In this document: positions 1 to 5,558 of the stretch, one piece after another
Position numbering within the stretch: position 1 is the stretch's first letter
Layout of the letters: each line of letters starts with the position of its first letter
DNA from: Dehalococcoidia bacterium
GTDB taxonomy: Bacteria > Chloroflexota > Dehalococcoidia > E44-bin15
Reading direction: 5' to 3'
NCBI GenBank assembly: GCA_030610655.1
Contig: JAUWRG010000012.1
Span: 1 to 32,073, forward strand
Length of the DNA stretch: 32,073 nucleotides
The notes under the pieces: model-generated
Database searches by the model: none
What the model was told of the DNA's origin: nothing
The model's input: only the letters and a program-made list of their open reading frames with translations
Made by a program: the position numbers and the translations under genes

Positions 1-392
1 GGGGCTTGTAACAGTCCATGTTCTTGGCCCGACAGATCCTTCTGCTGAAGGACGGAGACGTTGATGCCATTCTTTCCCAGGCGGTCCCGCAGGGCAGAGT
101 AGTTGTAGCTGGAGATGGGCAGCCGCCGGTCCTCGACTAACCCTTTCTCTCGTAGCAATTCTTTCTCGATCTCTGCTTCCACAGCGGCAGACAGCTTGGC
201 CGGTGTCGCTCGCTTGTAGGAAGGGGAAAATGCCTTCGGATTTTGGCGATATTCTTTGCGCAAGGCGAAGAAGCGGGTCTTACCGATACCCAATGTTTCC
301 TCAACGCTCGCTCTCTCAATCGTCCCTTGACAATATCCCTAGAGCAAGACTTTGATCTGCTCGGTAGTGAACCGTTTGTGCATCTGGTCCAT
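1..392 (-). pseudogene. Broken IS transposase, 5' part, running off the left edge
   Basis: Read on the minus strand from the ATG at 392-390, which has an AGGAGG ribosome site at 398-403, the frame begins MDQMHKRFTTEQIKVLL and then hits an in-frame TAG. It continues with GTIERASVEETLGIGKTRFF, a helix-turn-helix-like N-terminus typical of transposases with an rve integrase core. Near the window edge the sensible reading shifts frame (RAKNMDCYKP lies in another frame than the preceding SALRDRLGKNGINVSV). One nonsense codon plus one frameshift make it a pseudogene unless these are assembly errors. The catalytic core lies outside the window. The exact IS family is uncertain (IS481/IS21-like is a guess). 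Confidence 0.7.
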
Positions 393-432
393 TTATTCCT
401 CCTTTTCATCCTGGAGGAATCTATCATGACCA

Positions 433-488
433 GTTCACTTTTCAACTGGAAATGGTTCACTTTTCAGGTTTAAACAGTTCCCTTTTGA
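433..488. repeat. Three iterons, 22-bp period, at the IS end
   Basis: GTTCACTTTTCA occurs at 433-444 and 455-466, and a variant GTTCCCTTTTGA at 477-488, each exactly 22 bp apart. Units two and three also share a following GTTTAAA-type tail. They lie just upstream of the broken transposase start, so they are best read as transposase-binding repeats at the element's end. Multiple terminal repeats are known in the IS21 and IS481 groups. Confidence 0.7.
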
Positions 489-522
489 AGTTTAAATAAC
501 ACGGAAGAGACTAAGCGAAGCC

Positions 523-551
523 TTGACAAGCACTAGAAAAAGTGCTATGCT
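523..551 (+). promoter_or_regulatory. Promoter of the winged-helix regulator gene, with an operator-like inverted repeat
   Basis: TTGACA (523-528), a 17-bp spacer and TATGCT (546-551), with TGC in front of the -10 (extended -10). The spacer holds an inverted repeat, AGCACT (529-534), six bases, AGTGCT (541-546), placed where a repressor would block polymerase. Confidence 0.75.
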
Positions 552-560
552 TTTAATAGG

Positions 561-580
561 TTCTTCCGTTTCCTTCGGAA
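561..580. promoter_or_regulatory. Putative operator, copy 1 (TTCTTCCGTTTCCTTCG)
   Basis: A 17-bp motif at 561-577 recurs with one mismatch at 1342-1358. Copy 1 is also a palindrome: TTCCG (564-568), seven bases, CGGAA (576-580). It lies just downstream of the -10, in the early transcribed region of the regulator gene, so autoregulation is the simplest reading. Confidence 0.5.
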
Positions 581-614
581 TACCCGAGCTAGAGATGGTC
601 TAGGAGAAAAGTCT

Positions 615-1328
615 ATGGAGCTTACTTATCGGCAGAAGTCATTTCTGAGGATGCTTCTTGAACTCTATCGAGAAGCACGCCAGCCCTTGCACTATACCCA
701 GGTGGCTCAGAGGCTAGGGCTAGGGAAGTCAAGTGCCTACGACATGCTTCGGCTCCTGGAACGAAAGGGGTTGGTGATGTCCGATTATGTCCTGCCCAAG
801 GAGAGCCCCAGCCCAGGCCGGTCTCAGGTGCGCTTCTGGCCGACTGCAAGAGCAAAGAATATCACTTCTATGTTAACCTCCGATGTTGAAGAGGACGGGG
901 AGGAATGGCAGCGGGTGAAAGCTTGGGTCTTGAACCGACTGCGATTTGGAAAAGCCTATAGCCGTGAGCGGGTGCTGCGTGAGGTCATGAAAATGATCCC
1001 AAAAGCTCAGTCGCCGCTGGCCGTGTGTGTGGAGGTTGTTACGATGCTCCTGCTCAGTGTGAAGAAAGTTCAATACAACCTGGGGCCCCAGAGTATCTTG
1101 TCCAAGGTGCTGGCAGCACCTCCGAGCAAGCTGGGTATGGGCCTCAGCGCGGGTCTGGCTGCGGGGATGGTGCATATGGATGCTGCATCTCGACAGATCA
1201 TAGATCATCTTGACGAATACGTGAAGCGGTATGAGACTTCGCTACAGGAATTGAGTGCTAAGAACGTGGAGGACCTGCATGAGTATACGCAGGACGTAAT
1301 TAGTGTCCTCCACCGTCATAACAAGTAA
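615..1328 (+). CDS. Winged-helix DNA-binding regulator, 237 residues
   Basis: Residues about 1-75 form a winged helix: YRQKSFLRMLLELYREA, then HYTQVAQRLGLGKSSAYDML as helix-turn-helix, then LLERKGLVMSDY and a Pro/Gly-rich wing (SPSPGRSQVRFWPT). The rest (about 90-237) is helical, with a Gly/Ala/Met-rich hydrophobic stretch around residues 170-195 (LGMGLSAGLAAGMVHMD) and a C-terminal amphipathic helix, perhaps an effector or dimer domain. I do not recognise the family of the C-terminal part. AGGAG at 602-606 precedes the ATG by 8 bases. The same putative operator lies before and after the gene, which suggests it controls itself and whatever followed it. It could belong to the MarR/LexA-like winged-helix group. 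Regulator role is fairly sure; the effector is unknown. Confidence 0.75.
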   Translation: MELTYRQKSFLRMLLELYREARQPLHYTQVAQRLGLGKSSAYDMLRLLERKGLVMSDYVLPKESPSPGRSQVRFWPTARAKNITSMLTSDVEEDGEEWQRVKAWVLNRLRFGKAYSRERVLREVMKMIPKAQSPLAVCVEVVTMLLLSVKKVQYNLGPQSILSKVLAAPPSKLGMGLSAGLAAGMVHMDAASRQIIDHLDEYVKRYETSLQELSAKNVEDLHEYTQDVISVLHRHNK

Positions 1329-1341
1329 AATTTTTAAGAAA

Positions 1342-1358
1342 TTCTTCCGTTTCTTTCG
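1342..1358. promoter_or_regulatory. Putative operator, copy 2 (TTCTTCCGTTTCTTTCG)
   Basis: Matches copy 1 at 16 of 17 positions and begins 14 bp after the regulator's stop codon, before the decayed small ORF at 1376. The right half of the palindrome is degraded (CGATA for CGGAA). Position suggests control of the downstream unit by the same regulator, or a leftover of a duplicated upstream region. Confidence 0.45.
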
Positions 1359-1375
1359 ATATTGTGGAGATACTA

Positions 1376-1608
1376 ATGGCGGAGAATAGGATTCAGAGGA
1401 TTGGGTACAAAAGGCGTGTGCGGATGACTTCGATATCATACGAATCAACATGCAAGTGCCAAGGCCTGAAGTTTCCAAGCCTAAGAGGGCCAGGGACATC
1501 CGCAGCCATGTCGCTCCTGCGAGGGAGTAGGTACTATTAGACATATTGGCGGTGTGAGACGATCTCATCGAGTACGCCGAGCGACTTGTGACCGATGAGA
1601 CGAAATAG
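1376..1608 (+). pseudogene. Decayed small ORF of about 75 codons
   Basis: An ATG at 1376 with GGAGAT at 1366-1371 opens MAEN, but the protein-like reading then continues in another frame: DSEDWVQKACADDFDIIRIN, further residues to HVAPARE, a TAG, VLLDILAV, a TGA, DDLIEYAERLVTDETK and TAG at 1606-1608. All these segments lie in one frame broken by single stop codons, which looks like a recently lost gene of about 75 residues (one frameshift near codon 4, then nonsense changes). The intact ORF of 54 codons from 1376 in the original frame has an odd Arg/Ser/Cys-rich composition and is probably not the real product. No family recognised. Chance cannot be excluded. Confidence 0.35.
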
Positions 1609-1638
1609 GAATAGGCATAAAGGAAGGAGGTGAGTTAA

Positions 1639-1695
1639 GTGGAGAGGTGGACTTCGAGATTGAAGGGTCTGGCGAGAAAAATTCTTCGCCGCTAG
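1639..1695 (+). CDS. Possible 18-residue cationic peptide
   Basis: GTG at 1639 is preceded by AAGGAGGTGA (1624-1633), the most complete Shine-Dalgarno sequence seen in the window, at ideal spacing. The frame reads MERWTSRLKGLARKILRR and then TAG. It carries seven Arg/Lys against one Glu and could form an amphipathic helix. A 16-bp perfect hairpin follows 6 bases later, and a radical SAM gene begins 226 bp downstream. It could be a real small peptide, a leader peptide working with the hairpin, or a remnant of a longer gene. There is no Cys and only one Thr and one Ser, so a thioether or lanthipeptide-type substrate is unlikely. Confidence 0.3.
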   Translation: MERWTSRLKGLARKILRR

Positions 1696-1701
1696 TGAGA
1701 G

Positions 1702-1739
1702 GGGATGAGCGTCATGGGGCTGTCCATGACGCTCATCCC
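1702..1739. other. Perfect 16-bp inverted repeat (hairpin)
   Basis: GGGATGAGCGTCATGG (1702-1717) pairs fully with 1724-1739 around a 6-base loop. No T-run follows (CTCCCCCAAA on the plus strand), and no T-run flanks the minus-strand reading, so it is not a classical terminator. It lies between the possible peptide and the radical SAM gene and may be an RNA processing or attenuation hairpin, or a small mobile palindrome. The rest of 1740-1921 shows nothing clear except TTGACA at 1773-1778 without a good -10. Confidence 0.7.
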
Positions 1740-1921
1740 TCCCCCAAATTCCGGGTTTGCCAAGAGCGCAGATTGACAGCGAACCATAAAGAGTTCGAGA
1801 GACATTCGCCTTACTAAAAATGTTCGCGGCCGTAACCGCCATCTAGAGCGTTGAATTTGAGCTGTTGCCGGCGATTCTCGAAGAAAATACATTCAGAAAT
1901 CTACTACAAGCGAGGTGAGAG

Positions 1922-3334
1922 ATGCTAAGTAGGTATGCTGCCAAGCCATTGAGATTGCTTGTTTCCAGTTCCATCGTTAGAAGAAACATCATTTGGTTGG
2001 CTGATAAAAGACTCCGCTCAGGAATCTTAAAAAATCCGTGCTATCCGCACAAAGTCCAAGAAGATAAATATCATATGGCTAGAAATTTGATTCTGGCTAT
2101 TGGCAAGGCTTTTGAAAGAGCCGGCAAAGCCCCTCAAGTTCGCAAGGCGTTGCTCAATCAATTAGTCCTAGAGATTTCCCTGAAAAGAACACGGCGAGTC
2201 AAAAAATTCCAAGAAGAATTTGGCTCTCTTCCTCCTCTGTTTTTTGCTATTGCCCCAACGAAGTTGTGTAATCTAAAATGCACTGGCTGTTATGCTAACA
2301 GCTCATCAGCTTGCTCAGAAAAACTAGACTGGGATATTCTGGAAAAGGTCATTACAGAAAAAGCCACTCTTTGGGGTTCGCATTTTACCGTCGTAACTGG
2401 TGGCGAACCTTTGCTTTACAAAAGCCATGGCAAGACACTCATAGACTTGGCCAAAAGCCACCAAGATTGCTATTTTCTAATGTATACCAACGGCACACTA
2501 ATTGATAAAGAAATGGCCAGAGAATTGGCCGAGGTTGGTAACATCACACCGGCGATTTCTGTTGAAGGTTTTGAAAACGAGACAGACGCACGCCGAGGCA
2601 ACGGGGTACATAAAAGAATTCTTCGAGCTTTTGAAAATCTAAATGAAGTTGGAGTGCCTTTTGGAATTTCCATTACCGCAACTACGGAAAATGCCGATCT
2701 CCTTGATGAAAAGTTAGTCAAATATTACTGGGATAAAGGTGCATGTTATGCTTGGATTTTTCAACTGATGCCGATTGGTCGAGGCTCCTTCGATCTGGTA
2801 GTAACACCGGAGCAAAGACTAAAAATGTTTCTCCAGACCCAGGAATTAATTGGGAAAGGCTATTTTGTCGCCGATTTCTGGAACTGTGGAACTGTTGCAA
2901 GCGGGTGCATTTCCGCTGGCCGCCATGGTGGATATCTCTATATTGATTGGAATGGCAATATTACCCCATGTGCTTTTATTCCTTATGCAGTCGGAAATAT
3001 CAATGAGATTTACCAGAACGGCGGCAGCCTAAACGATGTTTTGCTTAGCCCATTTTTCAAGAGAATTAGAAAGTGGCAGAATGATTACGCGTTTGATAAG
3101 AGGCCAGAGGACATGGGCAACTGGATTTTGCCCTGTCCAATTCGTGACCACTATAAGGATATGCGAAAATTCCTAGAAGAATTTGATCCTAAACCAATAG
3201 ACAATGAGGCCGCTACCGCTGTAAAAGACACCAAATACAAAGAGGACCTAATCGATTATGATAGAAAGTTAGCAGAAGTTTTTGATCCTATTTGGGAGAA
3301 AGAATACTGCCAAAAATGTGAGTACAAAAAGTAG
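1922..3334 (+). CDS. Radical SAM enzyme with SPASM-like C-terminal cysteines
   Basis: The motif CNLKCTGC (Cys116, Cys120, Cys123) is the CxxxCxxC site binding the [4Fe-4S] cluster that cleaves S-adenosylmethionine. GGEP at 160-163 is the usual SAM-binding motif, followed by a radical SAM barrel to about residue 285. The C-terminal part has spaced cysteines (322, 329, 350, 405, 463, 466), including DWNGNITPCAF near Cys350, which fits a SPASM/twitch-type domain with one or two auxiliary clusters. Such enzymes modify peptides or make cofactors; the substrate here is unknown. The first 100 residues are basic and helical and not diagnostic. GAGGTGA at 1912-1918 sets the start. Base use is visibly AT-richer than the operon after it, suggesting transfer. 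The enzyme class is sure, the role is not. Confidence 0.9.
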   Translation: MLSRYAAKPLRLLVSSSIVRRNIIWLADKRLRSGILKNPCYPHKVQEDKYHMARNLILAIGKAFERAGKAPQVRKALLNQLVLEISLKRTRRVKKFQEEFGSLPPLFFAIAPTKLCNLKCTGCYANSSSACSEKLDWDILEKVITEKATLWGSHFTVVTGGEPLLYKSHGKTLIDLAKSHQDCYFLMYTNGTLIDKEMARELAEVGNITPAISVEGFENETDARRGNGVHKRILRAFENLNEVGVPFGISITATTENADLLDEKLVKYYWDKGACYAWIFQLMPIGRGSFDLVVTPEQRLKMFLQTQELIGKGYFVADFWNCGTVASGCISAGRHGGYLYIDWNGNITPCAFIPYAVGNINEIYQNGGSLNDVLLSPFFKRIRKWQNDYAFDKRPEDMGNWILPCPIRDHYKDMRKFLEEFDPKPIDNEAATAVKDTKYKEDLIDYDRKLAEVFDPIWEKEYCQKCEYKK

Positions 3335-3596
3335 CCAAATAACGCAATTTCCGAATACCAAAAACTCCAGACGAGGTTTGCTAAATAAAATTTGAAGGTC
3401 AAGGATTAGCCCACCTCAAGCGGTTCATAGTAATAACGAAAGTATAAATGGAAACTATGCCACAATTCTCGAAAACTGTCAGTTGGTCAGGTCTCACTAC
3501 GCCCCCGGTGTGCGGTGCATTATAACACCGGTTCTGCACAAGCAGGCGGACTGTCGTCCGCAAGGTAGAATGCCCTCTCGGAAACCACGACATAGT
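3335..3596. other. Intergenic stretch with two inverted repeats
   Basis: No convincing gene. It holds CCGGTGT...ACACCGG (about 3504-3530) and a hairpin GCGGAC-TGTC-GTCCGC (3546-3561), neither followed by a T-run. I looked for DnaA-box clusters because rpmH often lies near oriC and saw none. Confidence 0.5.
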
Positions 3597-3625
3597 TTGA
3601 CACCTCAACTAGGGTATCGTATAAT
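3597..3625 (+). promoter_or_regulatory. Consensus promoter of the rpmH operon
   Basis: TTGACA (3597-3602), exactly 17 bp, TATAAT (3620-3625): a full consensus housekeeping promoter, fitting a ribosomal protein operon. The expected start of transcription (about 3632) leaves only about 6 bases before the rpmH ATG. Confidence 0.9.
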
Positions 3626-3637
3626 CAGAATCTGACA

Positions 3638-3775
3638 ATGCCGAAGCGAACATATCAACCAAAGAAGATACCCAGGAAGCGGGAGCATGGCTTTTTAAAG
3701 CGCATGAGCACTCGCGGCGGCCGAGCTGTGCTCAAGAGGAGGAGGCTAAAGGGTCGCACGCGGCTCACGGTGTAA
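3638..3775 (+). CDS. rpmH: Ribosomal protein bL34
   Basis: A 45-residue, very basic protein starting [20 protein letters not shown] and containing [15 protein letters not shown], the standard bL34 pattern of the large ribosomal subunit. It is too short for a 60-codon ORF filter. No Shine-Dalgarno sequence lies before the ATG, and the predicted transcript starts about 6 bases upstream, so the mRNA is probably close to leaderless. It is followed after 2 bases by rnpA, the nearly universal bacterial order. Confidence 0.97.
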
Positions 3776-3777
3776 CG

Positions 3778-4125
3778 GTGAGAAAAGAAGAGCGGCTCAC
3801 CAAGAGAAAGGATTTTGAGATAGTCTATAGAAAAGGGAGGGCGTGGGCCAATAATCTGCTGGTGCTGAGGGCATTGCCTAACGAGTTGGGGTCAAGTCGA
3901 TACGGTTTCGCTGCAGGGAAGCGATTGGGAGGAGCAGTGGTGAGAAACCGCGTGAAGCGGCGGCTTCGAGAGGGGGCAAGGCTCGCACCGATTAAGGATG
4001 GTTGGGATATAGTGCTCATTGCTCGTCAGCATGCGGTTGATACCGATTATCATACTTTAAAGAGGGCACTGGAGGAACTGTTAGCTCGAGCGCAGCTACT
4101 GGGCAACGGGAGGGAAGAGGCTTGA
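3778..4125 (+). CDS. rnpA: Ribonuclease P protein component
   Basis: Basic protein of 115 residues that assists the RNase P RNA in trimming the 5' ends of tRNA precursors. The signature RNR motif is clear ([10 protein letters not shown] at about 56-65), after an N-terminal [17 protein letters not shown] and the [15 protein letters not shown] segment. The start is GTG, 2 bases after the rpmH stop, without its own ribosome site, so translation is likely coupled. The C-terminus overlaps the yidD start by 4 bases (TTGA). Confidence 0.96.
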
Positions 4126-4376
4126 CGACGACTCTCCCCCAAAAAACTATCCATTTTGCGATGGTACCAACGATGGTTGCCCAAGGGCTAATTCGTTTTT
4201 ATCAGATGACCATTTCGCAAGTTACTCCCTCCTCCTGTCGCTTTGTTCCCACCTGCTCTGAATATGCCTTTGATGCGATTGGAAAGTACGGCCTTTTAAG
4301 GGGCGTTTGGTTAGGAACGAGACGACTTGCCCGTTGCCACCCTTTCAATGCTGGTGGATATGACCCGGTGCCTTGA
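4122..4376 (+). CDS. yidD: Membrane protein insertion efficiency factor YidD
   Basis: Small protein (84 residues from TTG at 4122) with the YidD hallmarks: [18 protein letters not shown], a basic amphipathic middle, and [14 protein letters not shown] at the C-terminus. It helps YidC insert inner-membrane proteins. The TTG overlaps the rnpA stop (TTGA), suggesting coupling. ATG codons at 4161 or 4173 would give 71 or 67 residues, which fits the conserved start ([14 protein letters not shown]) at least as well. Confidence 0.93.
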
Positions 4377-4409
4377 TGCCCCTTTCTCTGCCGCTTATGT
4401 AGTGCCTTC

Positions 4410-5558
4410 ATGAAAAAAAGATTTTCGTTGTTATTTACCCTGTTACTAATAGGTTGCCTCTTCCTTACAGGTTGCCTTCCTGGCGCCGGCGGAGGTTTCC
4501 TATGCGGCGGCGGCACCCCCCCGAGCGGATGGTCAGGGCCGGTGGTCGGTAATGATACCCTGTATGTGGGCTCTATGACGGGCAGGCTCATCGCTTTGGA
4601 TGACCTCTCCATGCCACGAGCGAGAATGAAATGGCAGTACCCTCCGAGGGATGAATCTGACCTCGGCTACATCTATGGCACACCTTGTGTGGCGGATGGG
4701 GTGGTCTATGTTGGTGTCTATGGGGGCGCGACGCGCGACCCCAAGGTTTACGCCATCGATGGCGAAAACGGGTGGAGAATTTGGGCCTACCCCGAGGAGG
4801 GTTCCATCGGTCCCATCATAGGCAGCCCAGTGATTGCCGATGGTGTCCTGTATATCGGTTCTTCCGATGGCAAGCTATATGCCATCGACATCGAGACGGG
4901 CAGAGATAAATGGTGGCCTTTTGAGACGGGTGATGATATCTGGGCTGCCCCTGCGGTGCATGACGGCGTGGTGTACATTGGCTCCTTTGACCAGAAGCTT
5001 TATGCGTTAAATGCCGAAAGTGGCGTTGAGGTCTGGCACTTTGATGCCGGGGCTGCCATTGCTTCCACACCGTTGATATACAACGATACCATCTATGTTG
5101 GCTCTTTCGACCGAAAATTCTACGCCCTAAATCTCGATGGCACAGAGAAGTGGCAGTTCGACAAAGCGGGGAATTGGTTTTGGGGAACGGCTATAGCTTA
5201 CCATAATACAATCATCGCAGGCTGTCTGGATGGTCGAGTTTACGCCCTCGATGTTGAAACTGGGGATTGTGAATGGTATTACCCACCTGAGGAGCGGGTT
5301 GGGCCGGTTCGTGGCGACCCCGCACTGGTTGGAGACGTAGTTGTTTTTGGCTCTGAAAATGGCAAGGTCTATGCCTTAGATGCCTCTACGGGGCAGGAAC
5401 TTTGGCAATACCCTCCTGAAGAGGATTACCTTGGCCCTATTCGTGCCCCTATTTATGCTGGAAATGGCGTAGTTTATGTTCATGCTAGTAATCAAAAGAT
5501 ATATGCCTTGGAAATGGAGTACGGCCGTATAAATTGGAGCTTTTCCACCAGCGATTGA
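4410..5558 (+). CDS. PQQ-type beta-propeller lipoprotein, BamB-like fold
   Basis: An N-terminal signal peptide ends in the lipobox LTGC (Cys22), so the protein is probably lipid-anchored outside the membrane. It is followed by a Gly-rich linker and about seven blade repeats of the type VYIGSFDQKLYALNAESG (VYVGS..GKVYALD..TG), the PQQ_2 / BamB-like propeller. Length is 382 residues. The repeat does not imply a bound PQQ cofactor. Its place between yidD and yidC, on the same strand with gaps of 33 and 21 bp, is unusual and suggests a role in folding or quality control of inserted or exported proteins, by analogy with BamB; that is inference. No clear ribosome site precedes the ATG. Confidence 0.88.
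   Translation: MKKRFSLLFTLLLIGCLFLTGCLPGAGGGFLCGGGTPPSGWSGPVVGNDTLYVGSMTGRLIALDDLSMPRARMKWQYPPRDESDLGYIYGTPCVADGVVYVGVYGGATRDPKVYAIDGENGWRIWAYPEEGSIGPIIGSPVIADGVLYIGSSDGKLYAIDIETGRDKWWPFETGDDIWAAPAVHDGVVYIGSFDQKLYALNAESGVEVWHFDAGAAIASTPLIYNDTIYVGSFDRKFYALNLDGTEKWQFDKAGNWFWGTAIAYHNTIIAGCLDGRVYALDVETGDCEWYYPPEERVGPVRGDPALVGDVVVFGSENGKVYALDASTGQELWQYPPEEDYLGPIRAPIYAGNGVVYVHASNQKIYALEMEYGRINWSFSTSD

What the first reader, a model, noticed from the sequence alone, without database searches (positions are those of the whole stretch)
1376..3334. Possible peptide / hairpin / radical SAM unit next to a dedicated regulator
An 18-residue cationic ORF with the best ribosome site in the window (AAGGAGGTGA), a perfect 16-bp hairpin 6 bases after it, and a radical SAM/SPASM-like enzyme follow a winged-helix regulator. 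SPASM-type enzymes often modify ribosomal peptides. The region is AT-rich and lies by an IS, as expected for a mobile cassette. The peptide lacks Cys, so if it is a substrate the chemistry would have to be on Lys, Arg, Trp or Thr. It may instead be an attenuator leader or remnant.
Basis: inference. Interest (0 to 1): 0.65.

Follow-up and report, generated by a model that had tools for sequence, protein, structure and literature searches.

The report
Regulator-linked tiny peptide gene with hairpin
A gene for an 18-residue, positively charged helical peptide, followed by a conserved RNA hairpin, is a real part that travels with a DNA-binding regulator in one family of uncultured Chloroflexota-type bacteria, while the radical SAM enzyme beside it looks like a separable later neighbour rather than its partner.

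Summary
In detail: 18-codon ORF (1639-1695) behind the window's only AAGGAGGTGA, perfect 16-bp hairpin (1702-1739), intact radical SAM/SPASM-like gene (1922-3334), winged-helix regulator (615-1328). The reading "peptide plus radical SAM maturase" is not supported. None of 28 radical SAM relatives scanned has the peptide or regulator beside it. Instead, peptide and ribosome site occur right behind regulator homologues: seven copies at five loci in three genomes of one family, and nowhere else in 393 class genomes at up to two mismatches. One locus has three tandem copies. The peptide is under purifying selection; the hairpin is kept at four of five loci with five covarying pairs. In two relatives radical SAM and peptide have been lost reciprocally, so neither needs the other. 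The segment is a non-ancestral insertion before rpmH. Best reading: a self-regulated mini-operon making a small cationic amphipathic peptide, probably membrane-acting; target and role are inferred. New small-peptide family, known only from genome sequence.

The parts
523..551 (+). sigma-70-like promoter of the regulator (TTGACA-17-TATGCT)
   Evidence: same place in same-family relatives
564..581 (+). operator-like motif copy 1 (TTCCGTTTCCTTCGGAAT), downstream of the -10 in the regulator's leader
615..1328 (+). winged-helix regulator, 237 aa (IclR-type HTH plus helical C-terminal part of unknown type)
1345..1362 (+). operator-like motif copy 2 (TTCCGTTTCTTTCGATAT), 17 nt after the regulator stop
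1376..1615 (+). broken copy (frameshift, internal TAG and TGA) of a 74-80 aa ORF intact in G007:C91 and G010:C76
   Evidence: tblastn E 1e-7
1624..1633 (+). Shine-Dalgarno AAGGAGGTGA, unique in the window
1639..1695 (+). peptide ORF, 18 codons, M/VERWTSRLKGLARKILRR
1702..1739 (+). perfect 16-bp stem-loop, conserved with covariation in 4 of 5 loci
1922..3334 (+). intact radical SAM/SPASM-like enzyme, 470 aa; separable neighbour, AT-rich, nearest known relatives in WOR-3/Hydrothermota and others
1..500 (.). insertion-sequence-like repeat at the contig edge (parts repeated at 97-99% in contigs C20, C48, C27)

Best explanation
The unit is a regulator-peptide cassette, not a peptide-radical SAM pair. 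A promoter with an operator-like site near the transcription start drives a winged-helix regulator, which probably represses itself; a second copy of the site lies between the regulator and what follows. The cassette's product in this bacterial family is a tiny cationic amphipathic helical peptide made from a very strong ribosome site; the hairpin right after it most likely marks or protects the 3' end of that message. The peptide most likely acts on membranes (own or a competitor's) and may also be what the regulator senses. The ~75-aa ORF is a dispensable passenger and is broken here. The radical SAM gene came separately (different composition, nearest known relatives in other phyla) and may simply use the regulated position. 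Shown: conservation, coding selection, hairpin covariation, motif pairs, linkage to the regulator, independence from radical SAM. Inferred: self-repression, membrane action, role of the hairpin.
For: Pattern for ribosome site plus peptide: 7 hits in 393 class genomes, no hits for the reversed control, all directly behind regulator homologues at 5 loci in 3 genomes, one locus with three tandem copies. Coding: dN below dS in every pair where both could be computed, most changes at third positions, frame 0 scores best. Helix: peptide cores have high hydrophobic moments, 4 of 7 with p<0.03 against shuffles. Hairpin: -34 to -39 kcal/mol in 4 of 5 loci, 14 pairs 100% paired, 5 changed on both sides, 0 of 500 shuffles reach the covariation score. 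Operator: 0-1 mismatch sites in G000, G007, G010, G048 and G131 lie only at the regulator loci; motif at one or both flanks in most regulator loci of the phylum. Independence: G007:C49 keeps regulator, peptide and hairpin but its radical SAM has a large internal deletion; G009 keeps that radical SAM intact behind a remnant of the regulator promoter, with regulator, peptide and hairpin gone. Insertion: relatives with readable upstream sequence have rplY and, in most, fmt and enoyl-CoA hydratase before rpmH, with no cassette.
Against: Only three genomes, all fragmented draft assemblies that look like metagenome bins, carry the peptide, and 7 short copies give limited power for selection tests. 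Three of 7 copies do not reach p<0.05 for amphipathicity. Membrane action, translation and self-repression are untested. Two of the five loci do have a radical SAM gene (intact or deleted) behind the hairpin.
Confidence: 0.55

Rival explanations
1. RiPP: the peptide is the precursor and the radical SAM/SPASM-like enzyme its maturase, modifying Trp, Lys, Arg or Thr.
For: Adjacent in the window; enzyme model resembles anSME, SkfB, SuiB and CteB; Trp4 conserved in 6 of 7 copies and Lys9 in 7 of 7; a second locus (G007:C49) has a deleted radical SAM gene in the same place.
Against: 18 loci and 10 class loci hold the enzyme's relatives without the peptide; three of five peptide loci show no such enzyme; G007 and G010 gave no hit for this family at E<=1e-30; the two neighbouring enzymes are of different subfamilies; N-terminal ~100 residues are all-helical with no RRE-like strands; no Cys, leader or peptidase; reciprocal loss in G007 and G009.
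Confidence: 0.08
2. Leader peptide/attenuator: ribosome stalling on the ORF controls the hairpin and the downstream gene.
For: Short ORF, strong ribosome site, hairpin and gene in that order.
Against: No U-tract in any of the 4 hairpins and no overlapping antiterminator seen; N-terminal 16 residues conserved while length varies from 18 to 28 residues; three tandem copies; in G010:C208 only a convergent gene follows.
Confidence: 0.1
3. Toxin-antitoxin-like module: regulator as autoregulating antitoxin, peptide as membrane toxin.
For: Autoregulation-like operator pairs, sporadic presence, insertion next to a repeat, tiny cationic peptide, two loci in each of two genomes.
Against: Most regulator homologues in the phylum have no peptide and sit before ordinary membrane or lipid genes; gene order and regulator size are unlike known small-toxin modules (own knowledge).
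Confidence: 0.12
4. The peptide is mainly an intracellular effector of the regulator (inducer or co-repressor), not a membrane agent.
For: Linkage to the regulator at all five loci; regulator and peptide are both missing at the one scarred locus, G009.
Against: The regulator exists elsewhere without it; tandem amplification and strong ribosome sites suggest bulk product.
Confidence: 0.12

Closest known systems
Staphylococcal phenol-soluble modulins with the PmtR/Pmt circuit (PMC5080381)
   Same: Tiny leaderless amphipathic helical peptides, sometimes several in tandem (own knowledge for the modulins); an autoregulated HTH repressor with an operator overlapping the transcription start; exporter genes behind the regulator in several relatives here (ABC-2, MMPL).
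   Different: Regulator is not GntR/YtrA type; the peptide lies behind the regulator in the same cassette; no dedicated exporter in the window; no sequence relation tested or claimed; secretion unknown.
Radical SAM/SPASM RiPP maturases (SkfB, SuiB, CteB; PMC6231123)
   Same: Fold of the neighbouring enzyme, CX3CX2C motif and three further invariant Cys.
   Different: No RRE-like domain, no conserved precursor beside homologues.
IclR-family regulators
   Same: HTH_IclR domain above the Pfam cut-off.
   Different: No IclR effector domain matched; C-terminal part matches no Pfam family.

Membership tests
Radical SAM RiPP system | precursor peptide conserved next to the maturase | tested here: not met
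   28 homologous loci without it; some of those loci have short flanks
Radical SAM RiPP system | peptide-recognition (RRE) domain in or beside the maturase | tested here: not met
   model pLDDT 87, first 100 residues helical only; a stand-alone RRE elsewhere in the genome was not searched for
Radical SAM RiPP system | conserved modifiable residues | tested here: inconclusive
   no Cys; Trp4 in 6 of 7, Lys9 in 7 of 7 copies
PSM-like leaderless amphipathic peptides | short, no signal peptide, amphipathic helix | tested here: met
   18-28 aa by reading; 4 of 7 with p<0.03, 3 of 7 not significant; triple copy in G010:C76
PSM-like leaderless amphipathic peptides | dedicated exporter | tested here: inconclusive
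   MMPL transporter in the same stretch in G007:C91 only
PSM-like leaderless amphipathic peptides | secretion and membrane lysis | not testable with these tools
   needs bench work
Attenuator leader peptide | intrinsic terminator behind the leader | tested here: not met
   no U-tract after any of the four hairpins; not among terminator-like sites
IclR family | IclR effector domain after the HTH | tested here: not met
   only HTH-type families matched in the regulator with a strong score
Known structured RNA | match to an Rfam family | tested here: not met
   no match in 1-4500 up to E 1

The most novel reading that the evidence does not exclude
A PSM/Pmt-like circuit in uncultured Chloroflexota-type bacteria: a tiny membrane-active peptide made from the regulator's own cassette releases that regulator from paired operators and so switches on membrane-defence or export genes placed behind it; the regulator family itself is a phylum-wide membrane-stress switch.
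Probability: 0.15. Interest if true: 0.72.

Novelty: new variant of a known kind. Interest (0 to 1): 0.47.

Why it matters
It defines a tiny peptide family, far below usual gene-calling limits, by conservation, selection and a covarying hairpin, and ties it to a widespread, unstudied regulator with an explicit operator. That makes a direct test possible (peptide-regulator-operator binding) and warns against reading every small ORF beside a SPASM-type enzyme as its substrate.

Tried and rejected
Regulator in viral contigs and peptide pattern in viral contigs: nothing. Regulator in plasmids: nothing; radical SAM in plasmids: distant hits only (about 27-35% among those listed) with uninformative neighbours. 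Rfam: no match. Defence library: only viperin-type hits to the radical SAM core, with no support beyond the shared core. First hairpin alignment had a wrong coordinate for G010 and was redone. PDB sequence search for the regulator: nothing significant. Literature searches found no description of this peptide or regulator. Searches returned errors and gave no data. Considered and rejected: the radical SAM remnant in G007 as proof of a peptide-enzyme unit, because of the reciprocal loss in G009. Not done: peptide pattern search outside the class; regulator loci outside the class were read by eye only.

Full report
What is there. The window is contig C21 of a 1.68-Mb, 91-contig assembly. Reading along the + strand: an insertion-sequence-like repeat at the contig edge, a consensus-like promoter at 523-551, the regulator 615-1328, a ~310-nt gap, the 18-codon ORF 1639-1695 behind the window's only AAGGAGGTGA, a perfect 16-bp hairpin 1702-1739, the radical SAM gene 1922-3334, then the rpmH promoter with TTGACA-17-TATAAT at 3597-3625 and the rpmH-rnpA-yidD block.

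Radical SAM relatives do not carry the peptide. Eighteen loci at 38-49% identity, from WOR-3, Hydrothermota, TA06, Bacteroidales, Omnitrophota, a few Chloroflexota and others, and ten class loci at 33-41% contain neither the small ORF nor the regulator (some loci have short flanks). The enzyme is intact: CX3CX2C at 116-123 and invariant Cys 329, 350 and 405. Its model (pLDDT 87) resembles anSME, SkfB, SuiB and CteB, but its first ~100 residues are helices only, unlike the RRE domains of SkfB, SuiB and CteB (PMC6231123). In Bacteroidales and Omnitrophota its relatives sit among lipid-type genes such as an MMPL-like exporter, FabH-like synthases, acyltransferases and a patatin-like protein (names from reading the translations).

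Regulator relatives do carry it, within one family. Of 393 class genomes, 15 have the regulator. In the two other same-family genomes that have it, at four loci, the peptide follows with the same ribosome site: G007:C91 MERWTSKVKGLLKKVLGLPGEIRK, G007:C49 MARWTSEFKGLAGKVWGLPGRMVRLLTG, G010:C208 MTRWIDKVKGLVKRALGK, and G010:C76 three tandem copies. A degenerate pattern of ribosome site plus peptide, two mismatches allowed, hits only these places and the window in 393 genomes, and its reversed control hits nothing. Over codons 2-17, dN is below dS in each pair where both could be computed, third-position changes are most frequent, and the true frame scores best. The cores look like amphipathic cationic helices; four of seven exceed shuffles at p<0.03, three do not reach 0.05.

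The hairpin. Four of five loci have a -34 to -39 kcal/mol hairpin directly after the peptide; G010:C208 has lost it. All aligned cells pair, five of 14 pairs changed on both sides, and slid controls fall to 30-55% paired. No U-run follows, so a classical terminator is unlikely; 3'-end protection or termination of another type is inferred.

The missed ORF and the operators. In G007:C91 and G010:C76 a 74-80 aa ORF lies between regulator and peptide. The window keeps a relic of it (1376-1615, frameshift plus two in-frame stops, E 1e-7), and two other peptide loci lack it. The peptide thus outlives this ORF. In G010:C76 the ORF reads on in frame into the first peptide copy. A motif TTCCGTTTCTTTCGGAA (TTTGGTTTCTTTGGAA in others) lies in the regulator's leader just after the -10 and again usually about 17-30 nt behind its stop codon. 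With at most one mismatch it occurs in the window's genome, G007, G010, G048 and G131 only at the regulator loci; the Dehalogenimonas-like G191 has sites elsewhere as well. Most regulator loci across the phylum show it on one or both sides. Genes behind the regulator elsewhere include DegV-like, PAP2-like, ArsA, metallo-beta-lactamase-fold, MMPL and ABC-2 proteins (some names from reading translations), which suggests a membrane or lipid theme (inference).

Reciprocal loss. In G007:C49 the gene after the hairpin is a radical SAM gene of another subfamily with a large internal deletion. G009 keeps that gene intact; in front of it stand pieces of the regulator promoter and of the stretch just before the peptide's ribosome site, with regulator, peptide and hairpin gone. 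Peptide without enzyme, and enzyme without peptide, both persist, so they are not obligate partners. This rests on draft assemblies and could be affected by assembly errors.

Insertion. In the other family members with readable upstream sequence the genes before rpmH include rplY, in most also fmt and an enoyl-CoA hydratase, and never the cassette. The regulator-to-radical-SAM segment is therefore a non-ancestral insertion here, next to a repeat. The contig of the one same-genus relative ends too close to rpmH to tell.

Mechanism. The most economical account is a self-regulated mini-operon whose useful product in this family is a small amphipathic cationic peptide. Membrane action is the commonest property of such peptides (general knowledge). 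The best-described working analogue is PmtR/Pmt, where an autoregulating repressor binds over the transcription start and is released by the peptides (PMC5080381). Resemblance in design is not membership: no dedicated exporter, secretion or activity has been shown here.

Verdict. Observation confirmed, interpretation partly supported: the peptide and its regulator are a real pair, the radical SAM link is not.

Noticed in passing
window 37-52: Near-palindrome TCCTTCTGCTGAAGGA occurs exactly 27 times in this genome and 4 times in the one other genome of the genus, and not in four related genomes or the reversed control; of the dozen copies examined most are intergenic. A genus-specific dispersed repeat.
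   Followed up: partly
L117:11975-12112 and L122:7913-8044: A conserved 43-45 aa basic small ORF (LRW..K.....LWDWK.R.W.RMGWSRPLK.K) with a strong ribosome site lies downstream of the regulator, among PAP2-like, MMPL or DegV-like genes, in two Dehalogenimonas-like genomes; no Pfam match.
   Followed up: partly
L080:2400-2828: Two small ORFs resembling the ~75-aa ORF stand upstream of the regulator in G131, behind the first motif copy, with ArsA downstream.
   Followed up: partly
window 1-254: Matches the end of contig C20 at 99% in opposite orientation, so the two contigs may be joined through this repeat.
   Followed up: no
L079 near 6395; L075 near 202-545: Radical SAM gene with regulator-promoter remnant in G009, and the same gene with an internal deletion in G007.
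   Followed up: yes
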